Below, in pieces: positions 1 through 17,151 of a stretch of DNA of 64,000 nt (positions within the stretch are counted from its first letter, which is position 1; each line of letters starts with the position of its first letter). The stretch spans positions 1,240,001-1,304,000 of the forward strand of contig NC_021291.1 of assembly GCF_000319575.2 (NCBI RefSeq), in the 5' to 3' direction. This stretch comes from Spiribacter salinus M19-40. Its GTDB lineage: Bacteria > Pseudomonadota > Gammaproteobacteria > Nitrococcales > Nitrococcaceae. A program made the translations under genes and the position numbers. The notes under the pieces were generated by a model. It was not told the DNA's origin. It ran no database searches and saw only the letters and a program-made list of their open reading frames with translations.

Positions 1-127
1 TGATCAGAATGGCCCCGATGTTCTTCCGGTTCATCAATGAGACGGCTTCGCGGACGGTATGGTCTGGCCCGAGCACGTGCAGATTGCCTGCCCGCGGCCC
101 GAGCAGGGATTTCACCGTTCGACGCAT
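1..127 (-). CDS. CBS-domain protein, N-terminal fragment
   Basis: Only the first 42 codons lie in the window; the gene runs off the left edge. It starts with ATG at 127 behind a GGAGGAG ribosome site. The visible residues (NLHVLGPDHTVREAVSLM, then a lysine/asparagine-rich turn and GAILI) match the opening strand and first helix of a CBS domain, where 'tV.eAv.lM....iGailV' is typical. CBS pairs bind adenosine nucleotides in stand-alone proteins or regulate attached enzymes. Only 31 bases separate it from the end of rraA on the same strand, so the two are probably cotranscribed. The downstream architecture cannot be seen. Confidence 0.75.
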   Translation of the reverse strand, partial: MRRTVKSLLGPRAGNLHVLGPDHTVREAVSLMNRKNIGAILI

Positions 128-158
128 CACGCTCCTCCTCCAGGGTGATCCGCTCGCC

Positions 159-638: not shown

Positions 639-710
639 CGAAAGCTCCTTTGTTCCCTGGCAAAGCTAACCGTCTCGGCGCGATCGGGCAACCGGGTGCC
701 TGGTCCCGGT

Positions 711-738
711 TTGACAGGGGCTGGCCGACCGGGAGAAT
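711..738 (+). promoter_or_regulatory. candidate sigma-70 promoter for the kinase gene
   Basis: A perfect TTGACA hexamer at 711-716 is followed, after 16 bases, by GAGAAT (4 of 6 matches to the -10 consensus). It lies in the 151-base gap between divergent rraA and the kinase starting at 790. The call rests on the hexamers alone. Confidence 0.4.
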
Positions 739-789
739 GACCCACCGCAACCACCACCCCATTCGGGTCCTTTTAATGAGGTGCTCTAC

Positions 790-1803
790 ATGCCCCCCAC
801 GCCCGCGACGCGTGCGCAGCCCATTCCCGGTGCCGGCCAGCTCGAGCAGCGACTGCGCGAGCGTCGCCAGCCCCTGCTGATTGGCGTCGCCGGCGACAGC
901 GGCAGCGGCAAGAGCACCTATACGCGCGGCATTGAGTGGCTGCTCGGTAGAGACATCGTCAGTCAGATCAGCCTCGATGGCTATCACTGCGAGGACCGCG
1001 CGACCCGTCAGACGACCGGCCGGACCCCGCTTGACCCCGACGCGAACCACCTGGACCAGGCAGTGGAGCATCTGCGCGCATTACAGGCCGGCCAAACGGT
1101 GGACATTCCTGTCTACGACCATACGCGCGGGTGCTTCCTGCCGGCGCGTCGGCATGAGCCCACCCCAGTGATCGTTGTTGAGGGCTTGCACACGCTCTAC
1201 CGCGGCTTCCGGGAATTGCTGGATTTTGCCCTTTATGTCGACACCGACGCAGCCGTCAAACGGATCTGGAAGTTCGAACGCGACACGCGCGAGCGCGGAT
1301 ACGCCGGCGAAGCAGTGGAGGCGGAGATCAAACGGCGCTCGGACCAGTACGACCGCTGGATCGCCGGTCAGCAGGCGGACGCCGACGTCATCCTGCGGAT
1401 ACACCCGAGTGGGCTGGACGATCTGGCACTGGGGCGTCTTGAAGTGCCCGAGGGGCCGAGCTGCCATCACTTGGAGGTCATCGTTAAACCACGGCCCGGC
1501 GAACAGCCCGCGCTCTACTTCCCGGTCGATCTCAATAACATGACCCGCGAGGCGGCCATGCCCTTTTTGCTGGCGACGGTACCGAGCCGGTTTCGCGACG
1601 AAACCGTCAACGTCCTCCACGTTGATGGCTACATGCCACCCGCCGCGCTGGAGACCCTCGAGCGCGAGATCTGTGCCTTCGCGGGGGTCGACTCACCCGC
1701 GGGCGACACACCCTCGGCGGCGGACCGCACACCCACAGTGCGCTTTGCCCAGATGCTGATTGCCTGGCCCATCCTCAGCCACCTGGCGGCATTAACCCGC
1801 TAG
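790..1803 (+). CDS. phosphoribulokinase-like kinase (class II PRK / uridine kinase family)
   Basis: The 337-residue P-loop kinase has GDSGSGKST near residue 35, then a SLDGYH segment, TPLDPDANHLDQ, an IPVYDHTRG loop, VIVVEGLHTLY (Walker-B-like) and LLDFALYVD. These blocks occur in the same order in class II (cyanobacterial/plant type) phosphoribulokinase, which makes ribulose-1,5-bisphosphate. The C-terminal part (residues ~230-330) is less recognisable. An upstream GTG at 781 is possible, but GAGGTG at 778-783 fits well as the ribosome site for ATG 790. No RuBisCO or other Calvin-cycle gene is in the window, so the substrate is uncertain. Its 3' end overlaps the convergent patatin gene by four bases. 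Confidence 0.75.
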   Translation: MPPTPATRAQPIPGAGQLEQRLRERRQPLLIGVAGDSGSGKSTYTRGIEWLLGRDIVSQISLDGYHCEDRATRQTTGRTPLDPDANHLDQAVEHLRALQAGQTVDIPVYDHTRGCFLPARRHEPTPVIVVEGLHTLYRGFRELLDFALYVDTDAAVKRIWKFERDTRERGYAGEAVEAEIKRRSDQYDRWIAGQQADADVILRIHPSGLDDLALGRLEVPEGPSCHHLEVIVKPRPGEQPALYFPVDLNNMTREAAMPFLLATVPSRFRDETVNVLHVDGYMPPAALETLEREICAFAGVDSPAGDTPSAADRTPTVRFAQMLIAWPILSHLAALTR

Positions 1804-2771
1804 ACGCTGGGTCCGGCACCGCCGGCTTCACCCCGGGCAAAGGCCTCGATCGCCGGCTGCATCTGCTGGATCGTATCGTAACCCTCGGCAATGGCCTCAT
1901 CGCCGCGATGCAGCTCGAGCAAGCCGATATGAGCCAGTCGCGGGCTGATCAGAAGATCGGGCGGATCACCGGCCATCCGACTGCGGGTAATACGATCCTG
2001 CATGACGTTGACCGACGTGGCGATCACATCAAAGACGCCTGGTGTCGTCTCGCCATTGCCCCGCTGAAACTGCGCCTGCAACGCCTCCGCCCGGTCACGA
2101 AAACCATGACTGAGCCGATCCAGCCACCCGTGCGGCGCCTCGTCCGGATCGCTAGGGGCGGCGGGCGCTGCCTCGACTGGCGGCTGAATCCGACGACCCA
2201 GCAGGCCACCACTCAGGTTCACGGCAATCACCCGATCGGCACCCATGGCGTGGCATAACGACACCGGCACCGGGTTCACCAGGCCGCCGTCGACGAGCCA
2301 CTCGCCATCGACCTGCACCGGCGTAAACACGCCCGGCAACGCCATGGACGCCCGCATGGCCGTTGCCAGATCACCCGCGCGCAGCCAGCGCTCCTGACCG
2401 GCATAGAGCTCGGTCGCCACCACCCCAAGCGGTGTTTTGAGCGCGTCGAAATCAAGCGCCGAGAAGGTGTCATTGAAATGCGCAAGCAGCCGGCGCCCCT
2501 GGAGCAGACCGCCATTGCCAAACGCGAAGTCCATGAAACCAATCACATCGCGGCGCGTCAGCGAGCGGACCCACGCCTCAAAGGCATCCAGATGATCACT
2601 ACAAAGCATGGCCCCAACCAGCCCGCCGACCGACGTGCCAGCCACCACATCCGGTTTGATGCCCGCTTCCCGCAGGCCCTGAATCACCCCGAGATGCGCC
2701 CACCCACGGGCGGCACCGCCGCCGAGTGCGAGGCCGACTTTTCCGTGCGTGGGGGCAGGCTCTGAACGCAT
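1800..2771 (-). CDS. patatin-like phospholipase (RssA family)
   Basis: The 323-residue protein opens with the patatin oxyanion-hole motif LALGGGAARGWAHLGV, has the nucleophile elbow GTSVGG (Ser near residue 47) and the catalytic Asp in VDGGLVNPVPV. These give the Ser-Asp dyad of patatin acyl hydrolases. RssA/YchK-type bacterial proteins are cytoplasmic or membrane-associated lipid acyl hydrolases of uncertain substrate. A proline/alanine-rich linker (PPVEAAPAAPSDPDEAPHG) splits the middle. Its ATG shares one base with the stop of the yceI-like gene upstream (TGATG), so CDP-alcohol transferase, YceI and patatin probably form one transcript, perhaps with lipid-related roles. Confidence 0.88.
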   Translation of the reverse strand: MRSEPAPTHGKVGLALGGGAARGWAHLGVIQGLREAGIKPDVVAGTSVGGLVGAMLCSDHLDAFEAWVRSLTRRDVIGFMDFAFGNGGLLQGRRLLAHFNDTFSALDFDALKTPLGVVATELYAGQERWLRAGDLATAMRASMALPGVFTPVQVDGEWLVDGGLVNPVPVSLCHAMGADRVIAVNLSGGLLGRRIQPPVEAAPAAPSDPDEAPHGWLDRLSHGFRDRAEALQAQFQRGNGETTPGVFDVIATSVNVMQDRITRSRMAGDPPDLLISPRLAHIGLLELHRGDEAIAEGYDTIQQMQPAIEAFARGEAGGAGPSV

Positions 2772-3379
2772 CAGCCGTCCTGCTGCACCGCCTCGAACTC
2801 AATGATGAGCTCAATCCGGTCACTGACCAGATCACCCTCCAGGGCGTAGTCCATGCCGTAGTCGCTGCGCATCAGGCTGCCGCGCAGCGAGGCACCCAGG
2901 GTATCAGCGCCGCCGATGGGGTGATCATCTCGGCGGTTAATCGTGGCCTCGAGACGAATGGGCTGCGTGATACCGCGGATGGTGAGATCACCGTGTAACG
3001 TGCCGGTATTCTCGCCTTCTGCCTCGTAGCGGTTCGCCTTGAAGCGAATCGCCGAATATTCACCCGTTTCCAGGAAGTCACCACCACGGATGTGACCATC
3101 ACGCTCATCATGGCCGGTGAACACACTGTCGGCGGCAATCTCCACCTCACCGCGCTCGAGGGTCTGTGATTCGCTGTCGTACAGGAACTCACCAGACACC
3201 TCGGTGAACTGCCCAAGCACGTCGGCAAACCGGGCATGACCCACCAGAAAACCCACACTGACATGGCTTTCATCGAGCACAAATCGCTCAGGCTCTGCCG
3301 ATACCGGCGTTGCAGACAAGGCCATCGCCAATGCTGATGTGCTCAGCAGGGCGGATCGGGCATAACGGATAAAGGGCAT
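2771..3379 (-). CDS. YceI family periplasmic lipid-binding protein
   Basis: Starting at ATG 3379, the protein has 202 residues with a Sec signal peptide ending around ATPVSA. The mature part has the YceI lipocalin-like pattern: FVLDESHVSVGFLVGHARFADVLGQF, then FTGHDERDGHIRGGDFLETGEYSAIRF, then GDLTIRGITQPI. YceI proteins bind polyisoprenoids such as ubiquinone in a beta-barrel; several are alkali- or stress-induced. A longer in-frame upstream extension was not used because ATG 3379 overlaps the stop of the preceding gene (TAATG) and gives a clean signal peptide. It lies between a CDP-alcohol phosphatidyltransferase and a patatin. Confidence 0.9.
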   Translation of the reverse strand: MPFIRYARSALLSTSALAMALSATPVSAEPERFVLDESHVSVGFLVGHARFADVLGQFTEVSGEFLYDSESQTLERGEVEIAADSVFTGHDERDGHIRGGDFLETGEYSAIRFKANRYEAEGENTGTLHGDLTIRGITQPIRLEATINRRDDHPIGGADTLGASLRGSLMRSDYGMDYALEGDLVSDRIELIIEFEAVQQDG

Positions 3380-4104
3380 TATTGCTCTCCTTGATTCGGA
3401 TTTCGCCACAGCGTGACAGCGTCGATGATGAACGAATAACTCACAAGCAGCAGTAACGCGAGCGCCGTCGGCGTGGCCACCGTGACGGGCAGACCGGGTG
3501 CCGTGCACAGCGCGAGCCCGACAGCCTGAATGCCACAAATGACGCGACGGCGCTGCGACGCGGGCAACGGGCGCGCCAACGCCGGCTGAACCCATCCAGC
3601 CAGCACAAAAAGATAACGCCACAGCCCGATCAGGATGACCCAAAGGCCCGCACGATCCAGGGCGTAGACCCAGAGGGCAAGCACCGCCAGGAGGACGGCA
3701 TCCACCTCCATATCAAACCGCGCACCGGCCTGCGTCTCACAACGAAGCCGTCTGGCGACAGCCCCATCCACCCCATCCAGTAGCGCGGCAGCCAGGGCAA
3801 AGGCAAAAATCGGCGCTGGATCCACTGCCATCGCCTCAGCGCCGGGCAACAATCCGATCAGGAGCATCACCAGCGTCGCGCGACCCAGCGTCACCCGATC
3901 CGCCTGCGTGATTGCGCGGCCGGCGCGCTGGCGCCACAACAGAACGGCCAAGACGGCGTAAGCCACCAGGGAAAGGGGCAACACACCAGCCGGCAAGCCA
4001 AGCCCAATGCGCAAGCCGCCGGCCGCGCCAGCAAGCAGGATGGCACCGAGCAGCAAATCCACGAGGATCGCGGGGTGACTGGCGTGGGGTTGTCCGGGAA
4101 CCAA
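3379..4104 (-). CDS. CDP-alcohol phosphatidyltransferase family membrane protein
   Basis: The 241-residue integral membrane protein has six or so hydrophobic segments. It contains the family motif D-G-x2-A-R-x8-G-x3-D-x3-D, seen here as DGVDGAVARRLRCETQ followed by AGARFDMEVDA (around residues 110-135). Such enzymes move a phospho-alcohol from a CDP-linked donor onto an acceptor alcohol in the membrane. It differs from PgsA and Pss in length and flanks, so the acceptor is unknown. The start is TTG 4104, preceded by GGAGGG. It heads the minus-strand run with YceI and patatin and is divergent (66-base gap) from the dehydrogenase that opens the pterin-like cluster, which may share its control region. 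Confidence 0.85.
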   Translation of the reverse strand: MVPGQPHASHPAILVDLLLGAILLAGAAGGLRIGLGLPAGVLPLSLVAYAVLAVLLWRQRAGRAITQADRVTLGRATLVMLLIGLLPGAEAMAVDPAPIFAFALAAALLDGVDGAVARRLRCETQAGARFDMEVDAVLLAVLALWVYALDRAGLWVILIGLWRYLFVLAGWVQPALARPLPASQRRRVICGIQAVGLALCTAPGLPVTVATPTALALLLLVSYSFIIDAVTLWRNPNQGEQ

Positions 4105-4170
4105 TGCTACCCTCCGATCATCCGACAGCGGGAAGACGCCAGTCTAGCAGGAGCGGGACATCAGCAACTC

Positions 4171-5148
4171 ATGAGTGAGCCGACGAGCCAGGCTTTCTGG
4201 ATCACCCAACCAGGCCACGGCGAAATCCAGTCCAGCCCCTTGCCGGACCTGCCCGCCGGGTGGGTGCAGGTGAGAACGCTATTCAGCGGTATCTCCCGCG
4301 GGACCGAGGCGCTTGTATGGCAGGGACGCGTCCCCGCCAGCCAGTCAGACCGGATGCGTGCTCCACGCCAGATGGGGGAGTTTCCCGGGCCCGTCAAATA
4401 CGGCTACAGCAACGTCGGGGTCATCGAAAAGGGCCCAGGGCAATGGATTGGGCAGACGGTGTTTTGTCTGCACCCGCATGAGACCCGCTATCAGGCACCC
4501 CTTGATCAGGTCCACCTGCTGCCCCCCGGACTCGACCCGGCGCGTGCGGTCCTGGCCGCCAATGTCGAGACCGCGATTAATGGCTGCTGGGATGCCATGC
4601 CGCGCATCGGCGAGCGCATCACCGTTATCGGGGCGGGCGTGGTCGGCACCCTGACCGCGGCGCTTTGCCACGCCGTACCGGGCGTTCAGCTGGAGCTCGT
4701 CGACACCAACCCCGAGCGTGAGTCGTTAGCCCGCGCCCTGGGTCTACCTTTCGTGACGCCGGCAACCGCCACCCCAGGGGTTGACCAGGTGATCCATGCA
4801 AGCGGCTCGGAGGCCGGTCTTGATCTGGCGCTGCGCCTGGGCGGTGATGAGGCGGCTATCACCGAACTCAGCTGGTATGGCGACCAGCCGGTCTCCGTGC
4901 CACTAGGCAGCGATTTTCACCCCCGCCGTCTGACTCTGCGCTCCAGCCAGGTCGGCCAGATTGCCCCGGATATGCGCCCGCGCTGGGATACCGGGCGCCG
5001 CCTGGGGCTTGCGCTACACCTGCTGGCCACGCATTCCGAGTGGGCGGTGCTAATCGATGGCGAGAGCCCGTTCGAGGCACTGCCCCGCACTATGGACAGC
5101 GTGGCGACTGGCCACGGCCTGTGCCATCGCATTCGTTATGAGGAATGA
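4171..5148 (+). CDS. MDR-type (zinc-binding) alcohol dehydrogenase family protein
   Basis: The 325-residue medium-chain dehydrogenase/reductase has an N-terminal GroES-like domain with [14 protein letters not shown] and [15 protein letters not shown], and a Rossmann segment [16 protein letters not shown] followed by ELVDTNPER. The classical catalytic-zinc Cys/His pattern is not obvious, so it may be a non-zinc reductase despite the family name. The chosen ATG gives the best N-terminus; the ribosome site is weak, and an upstream in-frame start at 4075 would run into the divergent gene. It is the first gene of a tight plus-strand operon (dehydrogenase, PTPS-like, glycosyltransferase, methyltransferase, membrane protein). 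The substrate is unknown; a side-chain alcohol or ketone of the cluster product is a reasonable guess. Confidence 0.8.
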
Positions 5149-5150
5149 CC

Positions 5151-5555
5151 ATGTACAGCATCAATGTCCGAGACCACTTCATGATCGCCCACAGTTTTCG
5201 CGGCGAGACCTTCGGGCCAGCGCAGGCGCTACACGGCGCCACCTACGTCACCGACGCGACCTTTTACCGTGAGGCACTCGATGCGGACGGGGTTGTCATC
5301 GACATCGCACTGGCTACCGAGGTGCTGCGGGCAACGCTGGGCCGCTACAATCTGAAAAATCTGGATGAACTGCCTGAATTCGCGGGCGAGAACACGACAA
5401 CGGAATTCCTCGCCCGGCACATCGCCGATGCCCTTGCCCAGGCCATCGATCGAGGAGAACTGGGGGAGAGCGCACGCACACTCGATCGCTTGCGCATTAC
5501 CCTGCACGAGTCTCACGTCGCCTCAGCGGCCTATGAGCGATCGCTGAAAGGGTGA
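5151..5555 (+). CDS. 6-pyruvoyl-tetrahydropterin synthase / QueD-like protein with altered active site
   Basis: The 134-residue protein is a one-domain T-fold member. It keeps FMIAHSF (His14), LHGATYV (His28), the DADGVVIDI strand, [15 protein letters not shown] and the C-terminal Glu in [12 protein letters not shown] (Glu120). PTPS/QueD enzymes use three zinc histidines and a catalytic Cys just before the H-G-H motif. Here H-G-H is H-G-A (Ala30), no Cys lies in that region, and the usual HxxLN is RYNLKN. It therefore belongs to a divergent subfamily whose reaction may not be classical pyruvoyl- or carboxy-tetrahydropterin synthesis. ATG 5151 is preferred over the overlapping ATG 5145 because AGGA lies six bases upstream. 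It sits between the dehydrogenase and the glycosyltransferase. Confidence 0.82.
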
Positions 5556-6610
5556 ACCATTGCCACTTTCTGGTGCCGGGTTCGCTCGACCGCCCAACCG
5601 GTGGCAGTCGTTACGACCGCGCCATCGTCGAGGGCCTTCGGCAAGCCGGCCAGCCCGTTGTTGTCCACGAGCTGGCGGGTGAATACCCGGGCGCCGATCC
5701 TGCGGCGGAAGCAGCCGTCGCAGAAGCGCTCCGCCAGATTCCGCCTGGCACACCCATCGTGGTGGATGGCCTCGTCCTCGGTGCCCTGCCCGCGTGCTTT
5801 GCCGCCGAGTCGAAGCATCTGCCAACGATTGCCCTGATTCATCACCCGCTGGGTGAGGAGACCGGTCTGTCGCACACACAGGCCGACGCCCTGCTCCGTC
5901 AAGAGCGCGCCGCACTGGCCACGGTCAACGCCGTCCTCGCCACCAGTGAATTTACCGCGGGCCGTTTGCGTGAACTGGGGCTTTACCGGGGGGCTATTCA
6001 CATCGCGCGACCCGGCGTCCAGCGGGCTGATGTCGTCCGAATCCGCCCGAATGGCGACCTGGTACAGCTCCTCTGCATCGGGTCGATAACGCCCCGCAAG
6101 GGCCAGGATGTTCTGGTTGAGGCCCTTCACCAGCTGTCGGATTGTGACTGGCAATGCCATTTAATTGGCGATACCCGTCTGGATGCGACGTTTGCACGAC
6201 AGGTAAAGGCGCAGATTAGCCGCTATGGTCTGACCGAACGGATCACGCTGCCAGGTGCCTTGTCCGCCGACGCCCTCGAGCAGGCCTATCAGGCAGCAGA
6301 TCTCTTCGTCCTGCCCTCGCACTACGAGGGTTATGGCATGGTGATCACCGAAGCCATCGCCCACGGGTTACCCATCGTGACAACGACCGGGGGCGCCCTC
6401 GCCACCACCCTTCCGCCGACCGCCGGCCTGGCAACGCCACCGGGTGATGCCACCGCTCTGGCCACCGCCTTGCGGCAGGTCATCACCGACCCGCACCGCC
6501 ATGACCAACTGGCTCGTGGCGCCCGCATCGCGCGGGAGACACTCGCTGACTGGCAACCCGCCATTGCCACCGTCATGGCCCTGGTCCAGGAGATGAACCA
6601 AGATGCCTGA
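5552..6610 (+). CDS. glycosyltransferase family 4 (GT-B fold)
   Basis: The 352-residue GT4 enzyme has an N-terminal acceptor domain ([47 protein letters not shown]) and a C-terminal nucleotide-sugar domain with [18 protein letters not shown] and the EX7E motif in [20 protein letters not shown]. These enzymes usually transfer a sugar from a nucleotide donor with retention. The predicted GTG start overlaps the stop of the PTPS-like gene (GTGA), suggesting translational coupling. The next gene starts eight bases before this one ends. Context suggests it glycosylates the product of the pterin-like enzymes, or a carrier for it; the sequence does not show the acceptor. Confidence 0.88.
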
Positions 6611-7415
6611 GCAGTTTGCCGCTGACTGGCTCGCGCTCCGCGAACCCGCAGACCATGCCGCGCGCGCGGCCTCACTGATTGGGGCACTCCAAGCGTCGCT
6701 CCCGGGGCAGCGCCGCCTGCGTATTCTTGACCTCGGAGCGGGCTCCGGGAGCAATCTGCGCTATCTGGCACCGCGACTGGCGGGGGCTCAGCACTGGCGA
6801 CTGGTTGACCATGATCCCGACCTCCTAGCTCAGGCCAGCGCGCATTGGCCATCAGCACACACCGGCTCCGCCCCACACATTGAGACGCACTGCGAGGATC
6901 TCGACACGTTGGTCGCGCATTCGCTGCCAAGCGTTGACCTGGTCACGGCATCCGCCCTGCTGGACCTCGTCAGTCGCGAGTGGCTCGAATCACTGGCGCA
7001 TCGGTGCGCCGAGCAACAGGTCGCGGTGCTGATCGCCCTCAGCGTTGACGGGCGATCAGCGTTTGCCGACCCCCTGCCAGACGACGGTTGGATTCGCGAG
7101 GCCATCAACGCCCACCAGCGCGGCACCAAGGATATGGGTCAGGCACTGGGCCCGGACGCGCCGGCGGCGGCCGCTGAGGCCTTCCAGGCCGCCGGTTACC
7201 GCGTGTCACTCGCGTCCAGTGACTGGTGCCTTGGCCCATCGGACGCCGCGCTACAACAGGCCTTGGTGGCTGGCTGGGCGGACGCGGCACAAGCCCAGGA
7301 CCCAGCGCACCAGGCAAGCCTCAGGCGTTGGTACGAGGCGCGTTGCGCGCGGCTGCCCGACCAGGCGCTGCGCGTCGGCCATCAGGATCTGCTTGCCCTG
7401 CCATGCCCACGCTGA
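6603..7415 (+). CDS. class I SAM-dependent methyltransferase
   Basis: The 270-residue protein has motif I RILDLGAGSGSNLRYL (about residues 38-53), an acidic residue at the end of strand 2 (WRLVDHDPDLLAQA), then DLVTASALLDLVSREWL as the motif II/III region. It is a Rossmann-fold methyltransferase. It overlaps the glycosyltransferase by eight bases and the next membrane-protein gene by thirteen, so it is fully embedded in the operon. The residues after 150 (NAHQRGTKDMGQALGPDAP and beyond) are typical of this cluster-associated methyltransferase rather than of UbiE/UbiG. The likely substrate is the cluster metabolite or its sugar; that is inference. Confidence 0.82.
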   Translation: MPEQFAADWLALREPADHAARAASLIGALQASLPGQRRLRILDLGAGSGSNLRYLAPRLAGAQHWRLVDHDPDLLAQASAHWPSAHTGSAPHIETHCEDLDTLVAHSLPSVDLVTASALLDLVSREWLESLAHRCAEQQVAVLIALSVDGRSAFADPLPDDGWIREAINAHQRGTKDMGQALGPDAPAAAAEAFQAAGYRVSLASSDWCLGPSDAALQQALVAGWADAAQAQDPAHQASLRRWYEARCARLPDQALRVGHQDLLALPCPR

Positions 7416-8278
7416 TTCGCCTGGCCATCTCTATCGCCCTGCTGGCCCTGGTGGCATCACAGTTCGGCGATGGACTCCTCGAGCAGCTGCGAACCGCCGA
7501 TACGCGCTGGTTGCTCGCCGCGCTGGCACTCGGATTCGCGCAGATCACCCTGTCAGCCTGGCGGTGGCGATTCACCGCGGGTCATCTGGCCATCCCCCTC
7601 ACCAGACGGGTGGCCCTGGGTGAGTACTACCTGGCGACCCTGGTGAACCAGACATTGCCGGGTGGCGTGCTGGGAGATGCTCAACGCGCCTGGCGCCATG
7701 GCCGCCAGTTACCGCGCCATGGCCCAGCCTTTCAGGCCGTGGTGATCGAGCGCCTGTCCGGTCAGATCGCCATGGGTATTCTGGCGCTGGCGGCATGGGC
7801 CTCTAGCCCCTGGGCGTCATCTGGCGCCCGCAGCCAGAGCCTTTTGCTGTTGCTCGCCCTGATCGGCTTCGTGGCGATTATCAGCGCCGGGCTAAGCCGG
7901 GCCCGCACGGCGCCTGACTGGATGCGAGACTGGCGGGATGCGCTATCCCGCGGTCTGTTCAATCGACGGGTATTGCCCCTGCAGCTCATGGCTTCGTTTA
8001 CCGTGGCCGCGGGCTATGTGGGTGGGTTTGTCTGCTGTCTCATGGCGTTAGGCCCCGCCGGCGGCATCATGCTCTGGATCGCGCTGATCCCGCCAGTGCT
8101 TTTTGCCATGCTGATTCCCCTCAGTATTGCGGGCTGGGGCATCCGGGAGAGCGCCGCGGCCTTACTTTGGCCCATGGCGGGATTGCCCGCTGCCGAGGGC
8201 GTTGCGGCGGCTATTCTCTACGGTGCCATCTCACTGTTAGCCGGCGTTCCCGGCGTTATGGTTCTGCTTCGGCGCTAA
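7403..8278 (+). CDS. UPF0104 / lysylphosphatidylglycerol-synthase-type transmembrane protein
   Basis: With ATG 7403 the protein has 291 residues and about eight membrane segments. It resembles the flippase half of lysyl-phosphatidylglycerol synthases (LPG_synthase_TM). Family marks include LVNQTLPGGVLGDAQRAWRHG and ERLSGQIAMG, and the late IPLSIAGWGIRESAAALLWP. No tRNA-dependent aminoacyl-transferase domain is attached, so it is the stand-alone membrane type often found beside glycosyltransferases, where a lipid or lipid-linked glycan translocator role is proposed. A much earlier in-frame start inside the methyltransferase gene was rejected because it would add a hydrophilic, low-quality N-terminus. 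The 3' end overlaps the convergent reductase gene by 23 bases. Confidence 0.85.
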   Translation: MPTLIRLAISIALLALVASQFGDGLLEQLRTADTRWLLAALALGFAQITLSAWRWRFTAGHLAIPLTRRVALGEYYLATLVNQTLPGGVLGDAQRAWRHGRQLPRHGPAFQAVVIERLSGQIAMGILALAAWASSPWASSGARSQSLLLLLALIGFVAIISAGLSRARTAPDWMRDWRDALSRGLFNRRVLPLQLMASFTVAAGYVGGFVCCLMALGPAGGIMLWIALIPPVLFAMLIPLSIAGWGIRESAAALLWPMAGLPAAEGVAAAILYGAISLLAGVPGVMVLLRR

Positions 8279-9083
8279 ACCCGAGTCGATAGAGTCGATC
8301 CCGACCCAGCGGAAAGGTCTGCACCTGCGGGCGCAAGGCTTGGTCCATATGATCAATCGCTGGCAGCTGCAGGCCCATCGGTCCAGCCCCGATAATGATC
8401 GGGGCCACGGTAAGATACAGCACATCGATCAGGCCGGCGGCCAGCCAGGCGGAAACGGTTCTTGCACCGCCCTCAATCAACAGCCGCTGCAGGCCAGCCG
8501 CTGCCAGGGCATTGAGAATGGCAGGTGGATCGCCAACCGGTGGGCGGAATACACGGTCCGCCGACGGTGGCTGCCCCGCCTCGCCGGTGATAATCCAGGT
8601 CGGCGCCTCGCCACCCGTGAAGACGCGATGTGTCGGGTCCAAACCATTCCGAGGGCAGACCACGATGCGAACGGGGTGACGGCCAGGGACGCTTCGCACG
8701 GTGAGTTGTGGATCGTCGGCCACGACCGTCCCTGCGCCCACCAAGACCCCATCGGACAGGGCACGCAGCCGGTGCAAATGGACTCGGTCAGCTGGACCGG
8801 TCACGAAATGCGAATGCCCGTTGGCCGTGGCAATCCGCCCATCCAGGCTCTGACCAAGCTGCGCGACGACAAGGGGCCTCGACCCACGCCACGCCACAAG
8901 CGGCGCATAACGATCGCACAACACGCCCGCCGCCTCTGCCGGCTCGTAATCCGCCAGGTCCGCGGGCGTGGCGTCGGGGGGATCCGCATCGTGATCGCGG
9001 TCGCCCCGACAAATGGAGCGCAGCCATCGCCAGGCCGCATGCGGGTCCTGATGAAGCGGCGGGTTGAAAACCTGTTTGTCCAT
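8256..9083 (-). CDS. stand-alone RibD C-terminal (pyrimidine reductase) family protein
   Basis: The 275-residue protein has a reductase domain of the RibD_C / dihydrofolate-reductase-like fold from about residue 70: VVAQLGQSLDGRIATANG, HRLRALSDGVLVGAGTVVADDPQLTVR, LLIEGGARTVSAWLAAGLID, then LTVAPIIIGAG. These are the NADPH and ribosylamino-pyrimidine binding blocks of 5-amino-6-(5-phosphoribosylamino)uracil reductase. The N-terminal zinc deaminase domain of bifunctional RibD is absent; instead there is a ~70-residue acidic extension of no recognised fold. It is divergent, by 59 bases, from the GTP cyclohydrolase II gene. It could serve riboflavin synthesis, but its place in the cluster suggests a dedicated reductase for a GTP-derived pyrimidine. 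Confidence 0.85.
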   Translation of the reverse strand: MDKQVFNPPLHQDPHAAWRWLRSICRGDRDHDADPPDATPADLADYEPAEAAGVLCDRYAPLVAWRGSRPLVVAQLGQSLDGRIATANGHSHFVTGPADRVHLHRLRALSDGVLVGAGTVVADDPQLTVRSVPGRHPVRIVVCPRNGLDPTHRVFTGGEAPTWIITGEAGQPPSADRVFRPPVGDPPAILNALAAAGLQRLLIEGGARTVSAWLAAGLIDVLYLTVAPIIIGAGPMGLQLPAIDHMDQALRPQVQTFPLGRDRLYRLGFSAEAEP

Positions 9084-9142
9084 GGCGGAATTGTTACAGT
9101 CTCTGGTGGTCTATCGCTACACGCTTATGACAGGGAGTTCCT

Positions 9143-10255
9143 ATGCAGCGCATTCGGCGCGCACTGATTGACCTGCGACGGGGAGAGCCGGTGCTGGTAA
9201 CTGGCGAGGGCGGCTGCCGCCTCGTGATCGCTGTCGAGAACCTCAACGAAGAGCGCCTGGGTGTCATCCGTAGCCTGACCACCGAGCCCGTTGCTCTGCT
9301 GATCACCGGGCATCGCGCCCGCGCACTTGGCATGGACCGCCCGGAAGACGATGCCGTCACGCTCAGCCTCGGCCGCCTGGAGACCGGCGCACCACTGGAG
9401 GCGCTGATGGCCGCGATGAAAAACCCGACTGGGCTGGATGCCGCCGACACGGTGCTGGCCGCCGAGTACGCCGCAATCGAAATGACGCGGCATGCCGGGC
9501 TCATGCCAGCGCTCGTGGCGATCGCCGCCGACCCGGACGCCCCTCAACTGCGGGATCAAATCGACACCGGGGAGATCCTTTGCGTGGATGCACCCGATAT
9601 CGCGGCCCTGGCGCCCGGCTCTTTGAATACACCCGAGCGAATTAGTGAAGCCCACGTGCCTCTGGAGGATGCCGAATCCTCACGATTCATCGTGTACCGC
9701 GAACGCGACGGCCTGCTTGAACATGTCGCCGTGCTGATCGGCGAGCCCGAGACCTGGCCAGGCATCCCCGCCCTGCGGATGCACTCGGCCTGCCTCACCG
9801 GCGATTTATTTGGCTCCTTGCGCTGTGACTGCGGCGAGCAGTTACGCAGCGCTGCTGCCACGATTGCCGAGGAAGGCGGTGGCATATTGCTGTACCTGGC
9901 TCAGGAGGGCCGGGGCATTGGGCTGGCGAACAAGCTACGCGCCTACGGGCTGCAGGATACCGGCCTTGATACGGTCGATGCGGACCAGCTGCTCGGCTTC
10001 GGCGAGGATGAACGCCGCTACGAGGCAGCTGCGGCCATGCTGCGCGATCTCGACATCCGCCAGGTTCGGCTAATGACCAATAACCCCGCCAAAATTGCCG
10101 CGCTCGAAGCCGCCGGTATCCAGATTGCCGGGCGCGAGGCCCTGCATGGACGCCTGAACAGTCATAACGTGCGCTACCTCACGGCCAAAGCCGACCGCGC
10201 CGGTCACTGGCTGGAGGAAGTACTCGCCGACGGCCGGCCCGACGGCCGCGCCTGA
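9143..10255 (+). CDS. ribA: GTP cyclohydrolase II with degenerate N-terminal domain
   Basis: The C-terminal ~190 residues are a complete GTP cyclohydrolase II: zinc cysteines 217, 228 and 230 in HSACLTGD/SLRCDCGEQL, Tyr251 and Arg257 in LLYLAQEGRGIGLANK, then LQDTGLDTVDA and LMTNNPAKI. The enzyme opens GTP, releasing formate and pyrophosphate. The N-terminal ~180 residues sit where bifunctional RibBA carries dihydroxybutanone-phosphate synthase, but the D-D-x-x-R-E-N-E-G catalytic block is replaced by AVENLNEERLG, so this half is probably inactive. The length (370) and layout match RibBA. A GGGAG site precedes ATG 9143. The 3' end abuts the convergent creatininase-like gene. It could feed riboflavin, the local cluster, or both. 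Confidence 0.88.
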   Translation: MQRIRRALIDLRRGEPVLVTGEGGCRLVIAVENLNEERLGVIRSLTTEPVALLITGHRARALGMDRPEDDAVTLSLGRLETGAPLEALMAAMKNPTGLDAADTVLAAEYAAIEMTRHAGLMPALVAIAADPDAPQLRDQIDTGEILCVDAPDIAALAPGSLNTPERISEAHVPLEDAESSRFIVYRERDGLLEHVAVLIGEPETWPGIPALRMHSACLTGDLFGSLRCDCGEQLRSAAATIAEEGGGILLYLAQEGRGIGLANKLRAYGLQDTGLDTVDADQLLGFGEDERRYEAAAAMLRDLDIRQVRLMTNNPAKIAALEAAGIQIAGREALHGRLNSHNVRYLTAKADRAGHWLEEVLADGRPDGRA

Positions 10256-11065
10256 CTACTCGGGGTCAGACCCACGCAACGCACTGAGGGGAAATCGGGC
10301 GGCTTCGCCGATGAGCTCCGCCAGAATGCCGGCATAGTGCCCATCCAGGGCCTTGCCCATTGCCGCGGTGGCGAGTGTCGCGTTGCCGCTAACGCCCGCG
10401 GCATTGAGATCCCCTGCCATCCAGGCGAAGCGTCCAGCACCCGACTCTGCCCCCAGCCAGCGATAATCCGCCAGAGCCGTATAGTCCACGGATGGCCAGT
10501 GACTGGCCTCAGCCGTGATGACCTGCTCCGGGGCGTAGTGCAGCATCAGGGCCGTTTCCAGGGCGCCCCCGTGAAGGCCCTCGCGTTGCTCACGCTCGGG
10601 TAGGAGGTCGGTTGCGGGCGGAGGGAAATCAAAATAACAGGCCTTCACCACCAACATGGCATGCCGAGCCCGCAGCGCCAACGCCATCGTTTCCGCGTCA
10701 GCCAGATTACCGCCATGGCTTGAGAACAAGACCAGCCGTCGACAGCCCGCCCGGGCCACGGCGTCACCCAGGTCATTCAGCATGCCCTGAAAGGTCGTTG
10801 AGGAGAGCGTTAACGTGCCGGGATACGCCGTGTGCTCGAGGCTCTGACCCAACGAAAGCGTGGGCAGTCGTAGCACCGACAACCCCATCGGCAACGCCTT
10901 CAGCGCCGAATCGACCAGACCGTCCGCAATCACGGTATCCGTGCCCAGAGGCAAATGCGGGCCATGCTGCTCTGTCGCGCCCAGCGGCAGCACAGCCACC
11001 GTCTGCGCATCCACTTCGCTCGCCAGCGCTTCTGCTGTGAGATCACGCCAGTTCATCACGCTCAT
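10256..11065 (-). CDS. creatininase-family metal-dependent hydrolase (ArfB/MftE-like)
   Basis: The 269-residue protein has the creatininase metal-site motifs: LGATEQHGPHLPLGTDT (Glu32, His34, Asp43), SSHGGN (His117) and HGGALETALMLH (Glu170). The family includes creatinine amidohydrolase, the archaeal formylaminopyrimidine deformylase ArfB and the mycofactocin peptidase MftE. With a GTP cyclohydrolase and a RibD-type reductase next door, a formamido-pyrimidine or cyclic amide substrate is plausible, but bacterial GTP cyclohydrolase II already releases formate. The start (ATG 11065) overlaps the stop of the UDG-family gene (ATGA), so its own transcript is shared with that gene, not with the cyclohydrolase, which is convergent. 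Confidence 0.82.
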   Translation of the reverse strand: MSVMNWRDLTAEALASEVDAQTVAVLPLGATEQHGPHLPLGTDTVIADGLVDSALKALPMGLSVLRLPTLSLGQSLEHTAYPGTLTLSSTTFQGMLNDLGDAVARAGCRRLVLFSSHGGNLADAETMALALRARHAMLVVKACYFDFPPPATDLLPEREQREGLHGGALETALMLHYAPEQVITAEASHWPSVDYTALADYRWLGAESGAGRFAWMAGDLNAAGVSGNATLATAAMGKALDGHYAGILAELIGEAARFPLSALRGSDPE

Positions 11066-11742
11066 GACAGGCCCTCCAGGGTCTCGAGACGGGCCGCAAG
11101 CAGCCCTGGAAAGCGCTTGAACCAGGTCGCATTCAGCGGCGATGGATGCGGAAGTGGGTGCAGGGTGAGCGTTCGGACGACCCCATCCGGGCCGGCATGC
11201 GAGATGGCCGGGCTGGTCTCGAACCGCTGCGGATCAGCCCAGTGTGCCTCGAGCCGAGCCCGCACATCCGGTGTTTGGCCAATGCCAAACCAGAAAAACG
11301 CCTCACGCCCGAGCGTGATCACCTGCGAGCCGGACCAGCAGTCATGCAGTACTGTCGCCACCAACGGCTGGAATTGCCGCTTGATAGCCATTGACCACGC
11401 CTTATTGCCGAGGGGTTTATAAGGCACGGTGTTCGCCCAGAAATACGGCTCACCGGCTGCAATGGCCGCAGCGCGATCGGTGAGCTCATCGCCGTGCTGG
11501 CGCTGATGCAATACCCGTCGGACCTGTCGACCGCCCGTGCCGATGAACGGCACCCCGGCGTGCACCTCATCACGCCCAGGATCGCGCCCGAAAAAGGCAA
11601 TCGCTGCATCATCCGCGCCCAGGCCGAAAATCGGTGATCGTGGATCGCGTTGCGCCTGTTCGTAGACCGCGTGATCCAGCCCGGGGAGTTGATGGGCTGC
11701 TGCCTCAAAGCGCGCCTGAAGCTCGGCGGGCAGATCCCGCAT
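11062..11742 (-). CDS. uracil-DNA glycosylase superfamily protein
   Basis: From ATG 11742 the protein has 226 residues. Motif A is IAFFGRDPGRDEVHAGVPFIGTGGRQVRRVL, resembling the 'GEAPG...G.PF.G..G' water-activating loop of family 4/5 uracil glycosylases, and motif B is LHPLPHPSPLNATW. NTVPYKPLGNKAW lies between. The Asp of GRDPG would occupy the catalytic position. It may remove uracil or other damaged bases; the exact family is not assigned. An in-frame extension upstream to 11886 overlaps the preceding gene in an implausible way and was dropped. One base separates it from the upstream hypothetical gene, and it overlaps the creatininase gene by ATGA. Confidence 0.72.
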   Translation of the reverse strand: MRDLPAELQARFEAAAHQLPGLDHAVYEQAQRDPRSPIFGLGADDAAIAFFGRDPGRDEVHAGVPFIGTGGRQVRRVLHQRQHGDELTDRAAAIAAGEPYFWANTVPYKPLGNKAWSMAIKRQFQPLVATVLHDCWSGSQVITLGREAFFWFGIGQTPDVRARLEAHWADPQRFETSPAISHAGPDGVVRTLTLHPLPHPSPLNATWFKRFPGLLAARLETLEGLS

Positions 11743-11743
11743 G

Positions 11744-12163
11744 TCAGTGCAGCGTCGCCTGCCGCTCCCGGGTTTCCTTGAGCACGCCGACCACGTCCTC
11801 CTCCCAGCTCTTGGCCAACGGCGAGCGCGCCACCAGCGCCGAGACCTCGTCCGCGCTGACGGGGTCGCCTTCCTCGTCGCCGACACTCAGGCGGGAGCGG
11901 TACTCATCACGCAGCTCGTAAGCCCGTTCACCGCTGTCGCCATCGCCCACGCGCAGCGTAATTTCATCGGCGTCGACCACCGCACGCCAATTCACTTGGG
12001 CAGTCCACCCCCGCGCATTGGAGTAAATCGACACGCCAGCGAGCTCTTGGCCGCTGCCCTGCTCGTTATCCATCACATGGACACTGCTGGTGAGATGCTC
12101 GAAGGGAGACTCCTCGAGAATTTGCAGCAGCTGCTCTTTAGGGATCATCGAATCGATATCCAT
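11744..12163 (-). CDS. hypothetical acidic protein
   Basis: I do not recognise this 139-residue protein. It begins at ATG 12163 with GGGAGGG just upstream, rather than at an earlier in-frame start near 12214. It is strongly acidic, with alternating hydrophobic and charged residues suggesting alpha/beta structure (IYSNARGWTAQVNWRAVVDADEITLRV could be a beta-hairpin), and a helical C-terminus (SWEEDVVGVLKETRERQ). There is no signal peptide, membrane segment or cysteine motif. It is the first gene of a three-gene run with the UDG-family and creatininase-like genes, with one base between it and the UDG start, and is divergent from the ProQ-like gene. Confidence 0.65.
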   Translation of the reverse strand: MDIDSMIPKEQLLQILEESPFEHLTSSVHVMDNEQGSGQELAGVSIYSNARGWTAQVNWRAVVDADEITLRVGDGDSGERAYELRDEYRSRLSVGDEEGDPVSADEVSALVARSPLAKSWEEDVVGVLKETRERQATLH

Positions 12164-12224
12164 CGCATCCCTCCCACGCGATCGATTGCCATTGCCTACA
12201 TCATACAACTGCAAGCGCGGTCTG

Positions 12225-12251
12225 TTGACCCATGCAGGCTTGAGGTATCAT
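12225..12251 (+). promoter_or_regulatory. candidate sigma-70 promoter for the ProQ-like gene
   Basis: TTGACC at 12225-12230 and TATCAT at 12246-12251 are separated by 15 bases, about 30 bases before the ProQ-like start. The hexamers are good, but the spacer is shorter than the optimal 17. Confidence 0.4.
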
Positions 12252-12281
12252 CCGATTTCGGGTATTTCACCGCGGAGTGTC

Positions 12282-12740
12282 GTGACAGCGGCTATGTCGA
12301 ATTCGCTGAATCAGAAGCGCCGTCGTGCAGAGCGCACCCAGGCTTTTCTCAAGGATCTGCAAAAAAGATTCCCCGATTGCTTCGCGGCGCAGCGCAAAGC
12401 CGTCAAGCCATTGGCGATCGGCATCCAGCAAGCCCTACGCGAAGCGTTGGATGCTGACCCGGAAACGGCCGAAACACCCAACTGGCTCATTCGTCAAGCG
12501 CTCGCACGCTACACCGGCTCACCTGCCTATCTCGACGCCATGGTTGCGGGTGCCGAGCGCATCGACCTCACGGGCCAGCCAGTTGAACCTGTCACCGACG
12601 CGGCCATCGAAGTAGCCAAGGCCCGACGTGAAGAACAGAAGGCCCGAGCTGCTGAGCGCAAGCGCCAGCAAGCAGAAGCGGCCGCTGAGGCACGGCGCCA
12701 GGAAAAGATCCAGCGCCTGGCCGATCACTTTAATCAATAG
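12282..12740 (+). CDS. ProQ/FinO-family RNA chaperone
   Basis: The FinO/ProQ domain covers roughly residues 15-120 of 152: RTQAFLKDLQKRFPDCF, then AVKPLAIGIQQALREAL, then NWLIRQALARYTGSPAYLDAM and a short AGAERIDLTGQPVEPV strand. The C-terminal tail is a long, highly charged Ala/Arg/Glu/Lys helix. ProQ-type proteins bind structured 3' ends and small RNAs and promote pairing or protect against RNases. GTG 12282 is favoured because GGAG lies four bases before it; ATG 12294 would give 148 residues. It is divergent from the 12163 hypothetical gene and followed by a small charged gene. Confidence 0.85.
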   Translation: MTAAMSNSLNQKRRRAERTQAFLKDLQKRFPDCFAAQRKAVKPLAIGIQQALREALDADPETAETPNWLIRQALARYTGSPAYLDAMVAGAERIDLTGQPVEPVTDAAIEVAKARREEQKARAAERKRQQAEAAAEARRQEKIQRLADHFNQ

Positions 12741-12781
12741 AGGGGACAATCCCCTCACCCACAACGCACGAGAGCGAGTCA

Positions 12782-12964
12782 GTGGAGCGGGAATTCAACC
12801 TAGCCGAAATGAGTCGTGAGGCCCTGGACGCCCTGCGACAGAAAATTGATACCGAACTAGACGCCCGAGCCTTCGAGGCGAGAATGCGCCAGGAGCTCAA
12901 GTCACACATTAATCGTCAGGAATGGATCAACAGCCATCACGACGCCCAGCGCCGGCGCCGTTGA
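12782..12964 (+). CDS. small charged hypothetical protein
   Basis: The predicted 60-residue protein starts at GTG 12782 and has no close family that I recognise. It is nearly all helical and very charged (REALDALRQKIDTELDARAF, then RMRQELKSHINRQEW) and ends in four arginines. The ribosome site is weak; an internal ATG at 12809 would give a shorter form. It lies 41 bases after the ProQ-like gene. It overlaps the proposed start of the BtuF-like gene by 43 bases, unless that gene begins at the TTG that overlaps this stop codon. It may be a small nucleic-acid-binding or regulatory protein; this is uncertain. Confidence 0.5.
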   Translation: MEREFNLAEMSREALDALRQKIDTELDARAFEARMRQELKSHINRQEWINSHHDAQRRRR

Positions 12965-13863: not shown

Positions 13864-13883
13864 TTCCGGACAAGGAGTACCGC

Positions 13884-15677: not shown

Positions 15678-15724
15678 TCACGCGTCACACTGGATGGCCA
15701 AGCGAGACCAGCCGTGGAGCCGTC

Positions 15725-17146: not shown

Positions 17147-17151
17147 GGCGG

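What the first reader, a model, noticed from the sequence alone, without database searches (positions are those of the whole stretch)
3379..11065. Possible undescribed pathway: GTP-derived pyrimidine/pterin, glycosylated, methylated and membrane-linked
Seen: a tight plus-strand operon of MDR dehydrogenase, PTPS-like protein, GT4 glycosyltransferase, methyltransferase and LPG-synthase-type membrane protein. It is followed by a convergent stand-alone RibD-type reductase, a plus-strand GTP cyclohydrolase II, and a convergent creatininase-family hydrolase. A CDP-alcohol phosphatidyltransferase is divergent from the operon's first gene. Known: GTP cyclohydrolase II opens GTP, RibD reduces the ribosylamino-pyrimidine, PTPS-fold enzymes act on pterin side chains, and creatininase-family ArfB deformylates a GTP-derived pyrimidine in archaeal deazaflavin/riboflavin synthesis. 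Inference: together they make a small GTP-derived heterocycle that is glycosylated, methylated and moved across or tied to the membrane. I do not know a characterised pathway with this set.
Basis: partly seen in the sequence, partly recalled or inferred. Interest (0 to 1): 0.82.

Follow-up and report, generated by a model that had tools for sequence, protein, structure and literature searches.

The report
Undescribed GTP-derived membrane metabolite pathway
A gene set found together in many unrelated bacteria, and in a related form in salt-loving archaea, looks like an undescribed pathway that opens up GTP, turns it into a small ring compound carrying a sugar and a methyl group, and attaches or delivers it to the cell membrane; its product is unknown.

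Summary
The genes are as described, and one dedicated pathway is well supported. Of 80 named loci, 75 hold MDR, PTPS-like, GT4 and methyltransferase together. In 185 gammaproteobacterial genomes the PTPS subfamily and the MDR occur in the same 6. Two Haloarcula plasmids carry a related set with GTP cyclohydrolase III, unrelated to GCH2, which supports GTP opening as the entry step.

I add a partner, "sul", a membrane protein of the sulfatase superfamily, often beside or fused to the CDP-alcohol transferase. Here it is unlinked, about 90 kb away beside mdoH; of the 185 genomes 4 have it, all PTPS-positive.

Best model: GTP to diaminopyrimidine to a tailored pyrimidine or pterin on a phosphodiester-type membrane carrier, flipped outward and acted on by sul. 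Product, order and acceptor are inferred. SCO6650, the Streptomyces coelicolor relative, has a solved structure but is listed as uncharacterised. Ten open-access searches found no description of the pathway.

The parts
2771..3379 (-). YceI-like protein, probable partner next to CDP-OH_P_transf
   Evidence: Pfam YceI 1.5e-34; in 13 of 80 named loci, the 13 being gamma- or betaproteobacterial by record title
3379..4104 (-). CDP-alcohol phosphatidyltransferase (CDPAP)
   Evidence: Pfam PF01066 1.7e-11; DxxDGxxAR(x8)GxxxDxxxD residues in 67 of 67 aligned rows, rows below a score threshold left out; in 67 of 80 named and 24 of 27 even-drawn loci
4171..5148 (+). MDR-type dehydrogenase of a distinct subfamily
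   Evidence: 79 of 80 named loci, 27 of 27 even-drawn loci; same 6 of 185 genomes as PTPS
5145..5555 (+). PTPS/QueD-fold protein of the SCO6650 subfamily; lacks third Zn His and catalytic Cys
   Evidence: Pfam PTPS; PDB 3d7j SCO6650 E 1.1e-65; residues; only PTPS-family match in the genome
5552..6610 (+). GT4 glycosyltransferase
   Evidence: Pfam Glycos_transf_1 7.8e-31; 77 of 80 named, 27 of 27 even-drawn loci
6603..7415 (+). class I SAM methyltransferase
   Evidence: Pfam Methyltransf_25 4.3e-9; 79 of 80 named, 22 of 27 even-drawn loci
7403..8278 (+). LPG_synthase_TM / flippase-like membrane protein
   Evidence: Pfam PF03706 1.7e-35; 55 of 80 named, 24 of 27 even-drawn loci
8256..9083 (-). 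stand-alone RibD_C reductase with about 65 aa extra N-terminus, no deaminase domain
   Evidence: Pfam RibD_C 4.2e-43; fused to GCH2 in L055, L061 and L183
9143..10255 (+). GTP cyclohydrolase II fused to a degenerate DHBP-synthase domain
   Evidence: Pfam PF00925 1.3e-55 over residues 166-331 only; N-terminal DHBPS motifs missing in alignment with own RibBA
10256..11065 (-). creatininase-family amidohydrolase (candidate formamide hydrolase)
   Evidence: Pfam PF02633 1.9e-58; E32, H34, D43 in 38 of 39 rows (one gap), H117 and E170 in 39 of 39

Best explanation
This is one copy of a widespread, dedicated biosynthetic pathway with two halves. Supply half: GTP is opened by GCH2 (in some haloarchaea by GTP cyclohydrolase III), the formyl group, where it is left on, is removed by the creatininase-family enzyme, and the RibD_C reductase reduces the ribose. 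The result would be a 2,5-diamino-6-ribitylamino-pyrimidinone phosphate that keeps its 2-amino group because the cluster reductase has no deaminase. Core half: the PTPS-fold protein, which has lost QueD chemistry but keeps the ring-binding Glu, holds this pyrimidine or a pterin made from it while the MDR, the methyltransferase and GT4 tailor it. CDPAP joins it by a phosphodiester to a lipid-type carrier, the LPG_TM protein moves it across the membrane, and the 'sul' protein (sulfatase/alkaline-phosphatase superfamily, taken to face outward) transfers or trims the head group, in proteobacteria perhaps to a periplasmic glucan.

Shown: the gene set, its conservation, separate riboflavin genes in this genome, loss of DHBP-synthase and QueD residues, the GTP cyclohydrolase III swap, and the sul partner. 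Inferred: every reaction, their order, the lipid carrier, the orientation of sul and the acceptor. My estimate for one dedicated pathway is about 0.85, for a GTP-derived heterocycle about 0.75, for a membrane or phosphodiester carrier about 0.45, and for a glucan acceptor about 0.2.
For: Synteny: 75 of 80 named loci hold MDR+PTPS+GT4+MT, 63 also CDPAP, 11 all nine. In the actinomycete draw 29 of 197 genomes hold the PTPS subfamily; of the 27 loci fetched, MDR 27, GT4 27, CDPAP 24, LPG_TM 24, MT 22, GCH2 22. PTPS subfamily (E 3.1e-40 or better) and MDR (1.6e-92 or better) fall in the same 6 of 185 gammaproteobacterial genomes, the window's included. The core is kept in a 1.1 Mb genome rated 99% complete. 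Dedicated role: rib operon elsewhere, three GCH2 matches, two RibD_C matches. GCH2-RibD_C fusions. GTP cyclohydrolase III in two Haloarcula plasmids between CDPAP and MDR-PTPS-MT (profile check on L285 only). sul: in one ORF with CDPAP in 10 of 27 even-drawn loci; in 4 of 185 genomes, all PTPS-positive; beside mdoH in this genome. Dinoroseobacter shibae plasmid: CDPAP, sul, LPG_TM and GT4 of these families beside mdoH and a glucan biosynthesis gene. Precedent: BrbF, a creatininase-family protein that deformylates this intermediate (PMC9478397).
Against: No product or reaction is known. Many clusters lack GCH2, RibD_C or creatininase. Seven of 22 PTPS- or MDR-positive genomes tested (14, 8) have a single GCH2-family match (two of 14, five of 8), and one, G053 (L049), has none, so the link to GTP opening is not strict. 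The window's creatininase matches MftE, creatininase and IolN models below cut-off and no ArfB model at 1e-3. Its divergence tracks the core genes (r 0.92-0.94) more than GCH2 (0.85) or RibD_C (0.27), which fits a core role as well as deformylation. RibD_C and GCH2 track each other (0.90) but the core less (0.65-0.82). sul gave no match at 1e-10 in 6 of 17 genomes tested (G190, G194, G063, G234, G041, G042) and occurs on 8 Paracoccus plasmids, at least 7 of them without a PTPS match (chromosomes not searched), so it is neither obligatory nor shown to be exclusive. A Streptomyces anthocyanicus plasmid has the PTPS subfamily with none of the other families within 18 kb. An mdoH gene was found in only 6 of 136 sequences scanned, and mdoH is common, so its adjacency is suggestive only.
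Confidence: 0.6

Rival explanations
1. The GCH2, RibD_C and creatininase genes are only a spare or regulated riboflavin branch; their neighbours are unrelated.
For: Both enzyme families belong to flavin synthesis; bacteria can run two riboflavin branches with a creatininase-family formamidase, BrbF (PMC9478397).
Against: Rib operon with RibD, RibE, RibBA and RibH elsewhere in this genome; the cluster GCH2 has lost the DHBP-synthase motifs; the reductase has no deaminase; the neighbours recur across phyla and in haloarchaea beside GTP cyclohydrolase III.
Confidence: 0.07
2. A 7-deazapurine-type pathway, as for queuosine or huimycin: PTPS-like QueD, then methylation and glycosylation.
For: Huimycin has a QueD homologue, one methyltransferase and one glycosyltransferase (PMC7439116).
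Against: No GTP cyclohydrolase I, QueE or QueC among the window cluster genes (the rest of the genome was not searched for them); the PTPS-like protein has Ala for the catalytic Cys and for the third Zn His in 81 of 81 rows.
Confidence: 0.05
3. The system makes a glycan or lipid decoration, and the GTP-related folds act on sugars; no pterin or pyrimidine is in the product.
For: CDPAP, sul, LPG_TM and GT4 occur without the GTP half nearby, beside mdoH and a glucan gene, in Dinoroseobacter shibae; sul lies beside mdoH in this genome; GCH2, RibD_C and creatininase are optional, and one positive genome has no GCH2 match.
Against: Two unrelated GTP-opening enzymes, GCH2 and GTP cyclohydrolase III, occur in the set; RibD_C is fused to GCH2; the PTPS subfamily keeps E122 in 81 of 81 rows.
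Confidence: 0.18
4. A soluble, secreted pterin or pyrimidine glycoside; CDPAP, LPG_TM and sul serve export or lipid background only.
For: GT4 and MT are among the closest partners of PTPS (77 and 79 of 80 loci); LPG_TM is missing in 25 of 80 named loci.
Against: CDPAP is in 67 of 80 named and 24 of 27 even-drawn loci with its active-site motif intact in the rows aligned and shares one ORF with sul in 10 of 27.
Confidence: 0.2

Closest known systems
SCO6650 of Streptomyces coelicolor (PDB 3d7j)
   Same: Same PTPS subfamily: E 1.1e-65 over profile positions 2-133 of 133. Recalled from the 2008 structure paper, not read: no Zn, no catalytic triad, no PTPS activity, pterin-like pocket kept.
   Different: Listed as an uncharacterised protein; to my knowledge its cluster was not treated as a pathway (recalled; the paper is not held).
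SCO6655, GCH2-like enzyme of S. coelicolor
   Same: Recalled, not read: makes the formylated product (FAPy), linked to a Tyr-to-Met change. Streptomyces clusters carry Met at that position together with a creatininase.
   Different: The window GCH2 keeps Tyr, so its product cannot be predicted from this. The S. coelicolor locus itself was not fetched.
BrbF formamidase (SMc02977) and archaeal ArfB
   Same: Creatininase-family deformylation of the GTP-derived intermediate, in bacteria for BrbF (PMC9478397; abstract, discussion section and passages seen).
   Different: Serves riboflavin; the cluster protein was not compared with BrbF directly and does not match the ArfB model at 1e-3.
Toxoflavin pathway (recalled)
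   Same: GCH2, RibD-type enzyme and methyltransferase in one cluster.
   Different: As recalled, no PTPS-fold protein, GT4, CDPAP, flippase or sul; a soluble azapteridine.
Huimycin pathway (PMC7439116, passages seen)
   Same: PTPS-fold enzyme, methyltransferase and glycosyltransferase acting on a GTP-derived ring.
   Different: Starts with GTP cyclohydrolase I and uses QueE- and QueC-type enzymes.
Osmoregulated periplasmic glucan synthesis (MdoG/MdoH/MdoB, roles recalled)
   Same: mdoH beside sul or beside the cluster in some loci; a phosphotransferase of the same superfamily decorates the glucan (recalled).
   Different: Four sul copies match no NCBIfam model at 1e-3; GTP-derived enzymes have no part in the known system (recalled).

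Membership tests
QueD / 6-pyruvoyltetrahydropterin synthase | PTPS fold by sequence | tested here: met
   Pfam PTPS 7.9e-23
QueD / 6-pyruvoyltetrahydropterin synthase | Zn triad His-x(n)-His-x-His | tested here: not met
   Third His is Ala in 81 of 81 rows; intact in the two second-form and three haloarchaeal copies aligned
QueD / 6-pyruvoyltetrahydropterin synthase | Catalytic Cys and Asp-His pair | tested here: not met
   Cys position is Ala in 81 of 81 rows; Asp-His pair absent in alignment with QueD-like relatives; which residues are catalytic is recalled
Riboflavin RibBA | GCH2 domain with Zn Cys and catalytic residues | tested here: met
   Alignment to 2bz0: three Cys and Tyr105, Asp126, Arg128 equivalents kept (their roles recalled)
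Riboflavin RibBA | Functional DHBP-synthase domain | tested here: not met
   No Pfam DHBP_synthase match at 1e-3; acidic and GHTE motifs missing against own RibBA (motif roles recalled)
Riboflavin RibD | Deaminase plus reductase domains | tested here: not met
   Reductase only; the bifunctional RibD is in the rib operon
ArfB / BrbF formamide hydrolase | Creatininase fold with metal ligands | tested here: met
   Pfam 1.9e-58; E32, H34, D43 in 38 of 39 rows (one gap), H117 and E170 in 39 of 39 (ligand roles recalled)
ArfB / BrbF formamide hydrolase | Orthology to ArfB or BrbF, and deformylase activity | tested here: inconclusive
   No ArfB model match for the window protein at 1e-3, weak ones below cut-off for L059 and L280; BrbF not compared; activity not testable
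7-deazapurine pathway | GTP cyclohydrolase I, QueE, QueC in the set | tested here: not met
   None among the window cluster genes; rest of the genome not searched for them
CDP-alcohol phosphotransferase | DxxDGxxAR(x8)GxxxDxxxD motif | tested here: met
   67 of 67 aligned rows; the motif itself is recalled
LtaS/MdoB-type phosphotransferase (for sul) | Sulfatase-superfamily domain with metal residues | tested here: met
   Pfam Sulfatase 4.8e-9 in L044, 1.1e-5 in L187, 5.4e-5 and just below cut-off in L282; invariant ESYG, S325, H437, GDHQ in 14 rows (roles inferred)
LtaS/MdoB-type phosphotransferase (for sul) | Match to a curated family or solved structure | tested here: not met
   No NCBIfam match for four copies; no PDB sequence match at 1e-3; structure job did not finish
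Periplasmic glucan modification | Acceptor is a glucan made by MdoH | not testable with these tools
   Only gene adjacency is available

The most novel reading that the evidence does not exclude
Bacteria and haloarchaea share a pathway that builds a glycosylated, methylated, GTP-derived pyrimidine or pterin as the head group of a phospholipid-type carrier, flips it to the outer face, and has an enzyme of the alkaline-phosphatase superfamily, sometimes fused to the CDP-alcohol transferase, hand that head group to the cell envelope, in proteobacteria to periplasmic glucan. It would be a new class of envelope molecule carrying a heterocycle that could absorb light or carry electrons; a cytochrome b561-type gene recurs in 9 of 136 sequences scanned.
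Probability: 0.25. Interest if true: 0.92.

Novelty: categorically new. Interest (0 to 1): 0.8.

Why it matters
Such breadth and its retention in a 1.1 Mb genome suggest a useful role, perhaps in the envelope or in redox chemistry. It would give a pathway context to SCO6650, whose structure is deposited as an uncharacterised protein, and it predicts a concrete product search in laboratory strains. In the six plasmid records the PTPS-like gene carries a queuosine-synthesis label, which the missing residues make unlikely.

Tried and rejected
Riboflavin-only and 7-deazapurine readings were tested and disfavoured (see rivals). Riboswitch control: no Rfam match in window 1-20000, and only two TPP riboswitches, both in L074, in seven loci. 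Phage origin: no PTPS match among 50,697 phage records at 1e-5.

A rule 'creatininase present means altered GCH2' was tried. In the even actinomycete draw it is exact: 13 of 13 creatininase-positive loci with GCH2 have Met (12) or Leu (1) for Tyr105, and 9 of 9 GCH2 loci without creatininase keep Tyr; 5 of the 27 loci have no GCH2. In the 80 named loci, 28 of 34 creatininase-positive GCH2 are altered at Tyr and 16 of 16 negative ones keep Tyr; the 6 exceptions (L030, L034, L066, L069, L074, L087), like the window, keep Tyr and have Ala for Arg90. I first took Arg90-to-Ala as a second route, but Asp or Asn stand there in two alphaproteobacterial GCH2 genes without a creatininase in the locus and Asp or Thr in three named ones, so I dropped it. 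These are a few clades, not independent events; the Fisher value ignores that. Contig ends may hide a creatininase in some loci.

Extra Streptomyces genes downstream of GCH2 in L059 (amine oxidase, saccharopine dehydrogenase) were judged unrelated. Divergence correlations have no control for species phylogeny. The HMMs were built on the 80 named loci, so counts there partly follow from construction; the 80 are the best-scoring of 580. The search for further shared genes used 51 of the 80 loci.

Literature: ten searches of an open-access library found no description of the cluster; long lists were seen as listings only, and subscription papers are missing.

Full report
What is there. The window lies at 1,240,001-1,304,000 of a single 1.74 Mb contig. 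I take it for a Spiribacter-like gammaproteobacterium from size and G+C; no call names it. Nine genes at 3379-11065 match the finding. A YceI-like gene (2771-3379) lies against CDPAP; YceI occurs in 13 of 80 named loci. The flanking UDG gene recurs in 1 of 80.

Is it dedicated? The genome has three GCH2 matches, two RibD_C matches and one PTPS-family match, the cluster gene. RibD, RibE, RibBA, RibH and NusB lie together at about 478-482 kb. The cluster GCH2 has an N-terminal half that aligns with DHBP synthase but lacks its acidic and GHTE motifs, and the reductase has no deaminase. Both point away from riboflavin.

Conservation. Of 40 near relatives (window genome included) 25 match PTPS in 26 places; 20 of the 26 (L004-L023) have MDR and GT4 alongside, the other 6 are weak matches without them. 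In these 80: PTPS 80, MDR 79, MT 79, GT4 77, CDPAP 67, LPG_TM 55, GCH2 50, RibD_C 49, creatininase 38, sul 24, YceI 13. In an even draw of 197 actinomycete genomes 29 are positive at 1e-20. I fetched 27 of the 29, leaving out G310, a fragment, and G052, already in the named set as L102: MDR 27, GT4 27, CDPAP 24, LPG_TM 24, MT 22, GCH2 22, RibD_C 13, creatininase 13, sul 13.

Co-occurrence. In 185 gammaproteobacterial genomes (window genome included), 20 match the PTPS profile at 1e-3, but 6 stand apart at 3.1e-40 or better, the rest at 4.9e-14 or worse. MDR matches 9 at 1e-40; the 6 best (1.6e-92 or better) are the same 6 genomes. The other three (G063, G226, G234) lie in a second form of the cluster: G234 has a GCH2-RibD_C fusion, MDR, PTPS and GT4; G063 has CDPAP, RibD_C, MDR, PTPS and GT4; in G226 GCH2, RibD_C, MDR and a weak GT4 match but no PTPS were found on its short contig. 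In G121 the set is split over two contigs. In G194, a 1.1 Mb genome, the core is complete, no GCH2 or creatininase is in the fetched 17 kb, and its single GCH2-family match is elsewhere. The creatininase profile matches 8 of 185 at 1e-30; the four strongest are G000, G223, G207 and G159, the last without the PTPS subfamily. Of 14 genomes of named loci, 13 have a GCH2-family match and G053 (L049) has none.

The PTPS-like protein. It belongs with SCO6650, PDB 3d7j. In 81 of 81 rows the third Zn His and the catalytic Cys are Ala, while H16, H30, E122, H11 and H124 are invariant. In the two second-form and three haloarchaeal copies aligned the three His are intact but Cys is still missing. It is thus a T-fold family that has left QueD chemistry. 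Its real reaction is unknown.

GTP entry. Two Haloarcula plasmids carry a gene annotated GTP cyclohydrolase IIa between CDPAP and MDR-PTPS-MT; the one I tested (L285) is GTP cyclohydrolase III by Pfam (3.4e-81) and over the NCBIfam cut-off. Haloarcula sinaiiensis has creatininase, CDPAP, MDR, PTPS, GT4, MT and a short gene with a below-cut-off sulfatase match; Halomicrococcus has MDR, PTPS, GT4 and MT only. GCH2 and GTP cyclohydrolase III are unrelated proteins (recalled), so their exchange argues that GTP opening matters. Creatininase and GCH2 variants are coupled in actinomycetes (details under tried and rejected). With BrbF as precedent (PMC9478397: abstract, discussion section and passages seen), a deformylase role for the creatininase is plausible. 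The FAPy product of SCO6655 and its Tyr-to-Met change are recalled, not read.

The membrane half. A search for further shared genes in 51 of the 80 loci found sul, a membrane protein with a sulfatase-superfamily domain; by profile it is in 24 of 80 named and 13 of 27 even-drawn loci. It shares one open frame with CDPAP in L238, L242, L244, L245, L248, L249, L250, L253, L255 and L256, and in L031 (frames read stop to stop). It goes with RibD_C in the even draw: 12 both, 13 neither, 1 and 1 discordant; in the named set 23 both, 30 neither, 26 RibD_C only, 1 sul only. In whole genomes it was found in 11 of 17 PTPS- or MDR-positive ones that I picked and in 4 of 185 gammaproteobacteria, all PTPS-positive (chance 3.2e-7 ignoring phylogeny). 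In the window's genome it is at 1,153,364-1,154,974, outside the window, divergent from an mdoH gene scoring over cut-off. In a scan of 135 loci plus the window, mdoH homologues were found in 6: near the cluster in Xanthobacter L060, Halomonas L074, Methylosinus L281 and Neorhizobium L288, near sul in L098, and in L296. L296 is Dinoroseobacter shibae pDSHI05, where CDPAP, sul, LPG_TM and GT4 of these families sit with mdoH, a glucan biosynthesis gene and cytochrome b. Rhizobium, Peteryoungia and Agrobacterium plasmids hold sul, LPG_TM, CDPAP, GCH2, MDR, PTPS, GT4, MT, RibD_C and cytochrome b together. A Paracoccus plasmid copy of sul has none of the other families within 19 kb.

Mechanism. I read this as a supply module (GCH2 or GTP cyclohydrolase III, creatininase, RibD_C) feeding a core (PTPS, MDR, MT, GT4, CDPAP, LPG_TM) and a probably extracytoplasmic enzyme (sul). 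The divergence correlations agree: core genes 0.90-0.94 among themselves, RibD_C with GCH2 0.90, core with RibD_C or GCH2 0.65-0.82 (no phylogeny control). Creatininase follows the core (0.92-0.94), which is a point against a pure deformylase role. No reaction is demonstrated.

Against and unknown. Some clusters lack the supply genes, sul is neither universal nor exclusive, one plasmid has a lone PTPS gene, mdoH adjacency is seen in few loci, and no structure prediction was obtained. Whether the product is lipid-linked, glucan-linked or soluble is open.

Novelty. Known pieces are SCO6650 and SCO6655, BrbF, and glucan synthesis. No paper in ten open-access searches describes the set. I rate it categorically new as a pathway, with the caution that subscription literature was not searched.

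Noticed in passing
G000:C1:1153364-1156876 (outside the window), L267: sul gene divergent from an mdoH gene in the window's own genome, about 90 kb from the cluster.
   Followed up: yes
L238, L242, L244, L245, L248, L249, L250, L253, L255, L256: CDP-alcohol transferase and sul lie in one open reading frame, an apparent fusion, in ten actinomycete loci.
   Followed up: partly
L285:6178-6960, L286:6178-6960: Haloarchaeal plasmids with a GTP cyclohydrolase III (annotated IIa) gene inside a related cluster; only the L285 copy was checked by profile.
   Followed up: partly
L296:3867-15478: Dinoroseobacter shibae plasmid pDSHI05 carries the membrane half (CDPAP, sul, LPG_TM, GT4) with mdoH and a glucan biosynthesis gene but no PTPS in the 19 kb read.
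   Followed up: partly
L183:6501-10302, L184:2019-7844: Second form of the cluster with a PTPS protein that keeps all three Zn His; the L184 PTPS (tested as L168) also matches TIGR03112, a PTPS-related domain, below cut-off.
   Followed up: partly
L066, L069, L074, L098, L099, L105, L184, L268, L278, L282, L289, L294, L295: An FkbM-family methyltransferase gene recurs near the cluster or near sul.
   Followed up: partly
L066, L098, L099, L282, L283, L293, L294, L295, L296: A cytochrome b561-type gene is found in these 9 of 136 sequences scanned, hinting at electron transfer.
   Followed up: no
L291:9004-9429: Streptomyces anthocyanicus plasmid with a lone PTPS-subfamily gene beside a MEKHLA-domain gene, without the other cluster genes within 18 kb.
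   Followed up: no
G159:C1:517196-517864, L186: Cluster-type creatininase in a genome without the PTPS subfamily.
   Followed up: no
L049 (genome G053): A PTPS-cluster genome (titled Pseudonocardia sp. N23) with no GTP cyclohydrolase II match at all; an incomplete assembly cannot be excluded.
   Followed up: no
window 11062-11886: Uracil-DNA-glycosylase superfamily gene next to the creatininase, seen in only 1 of 80 loci; judged not part of the system.
   Followed up: yes
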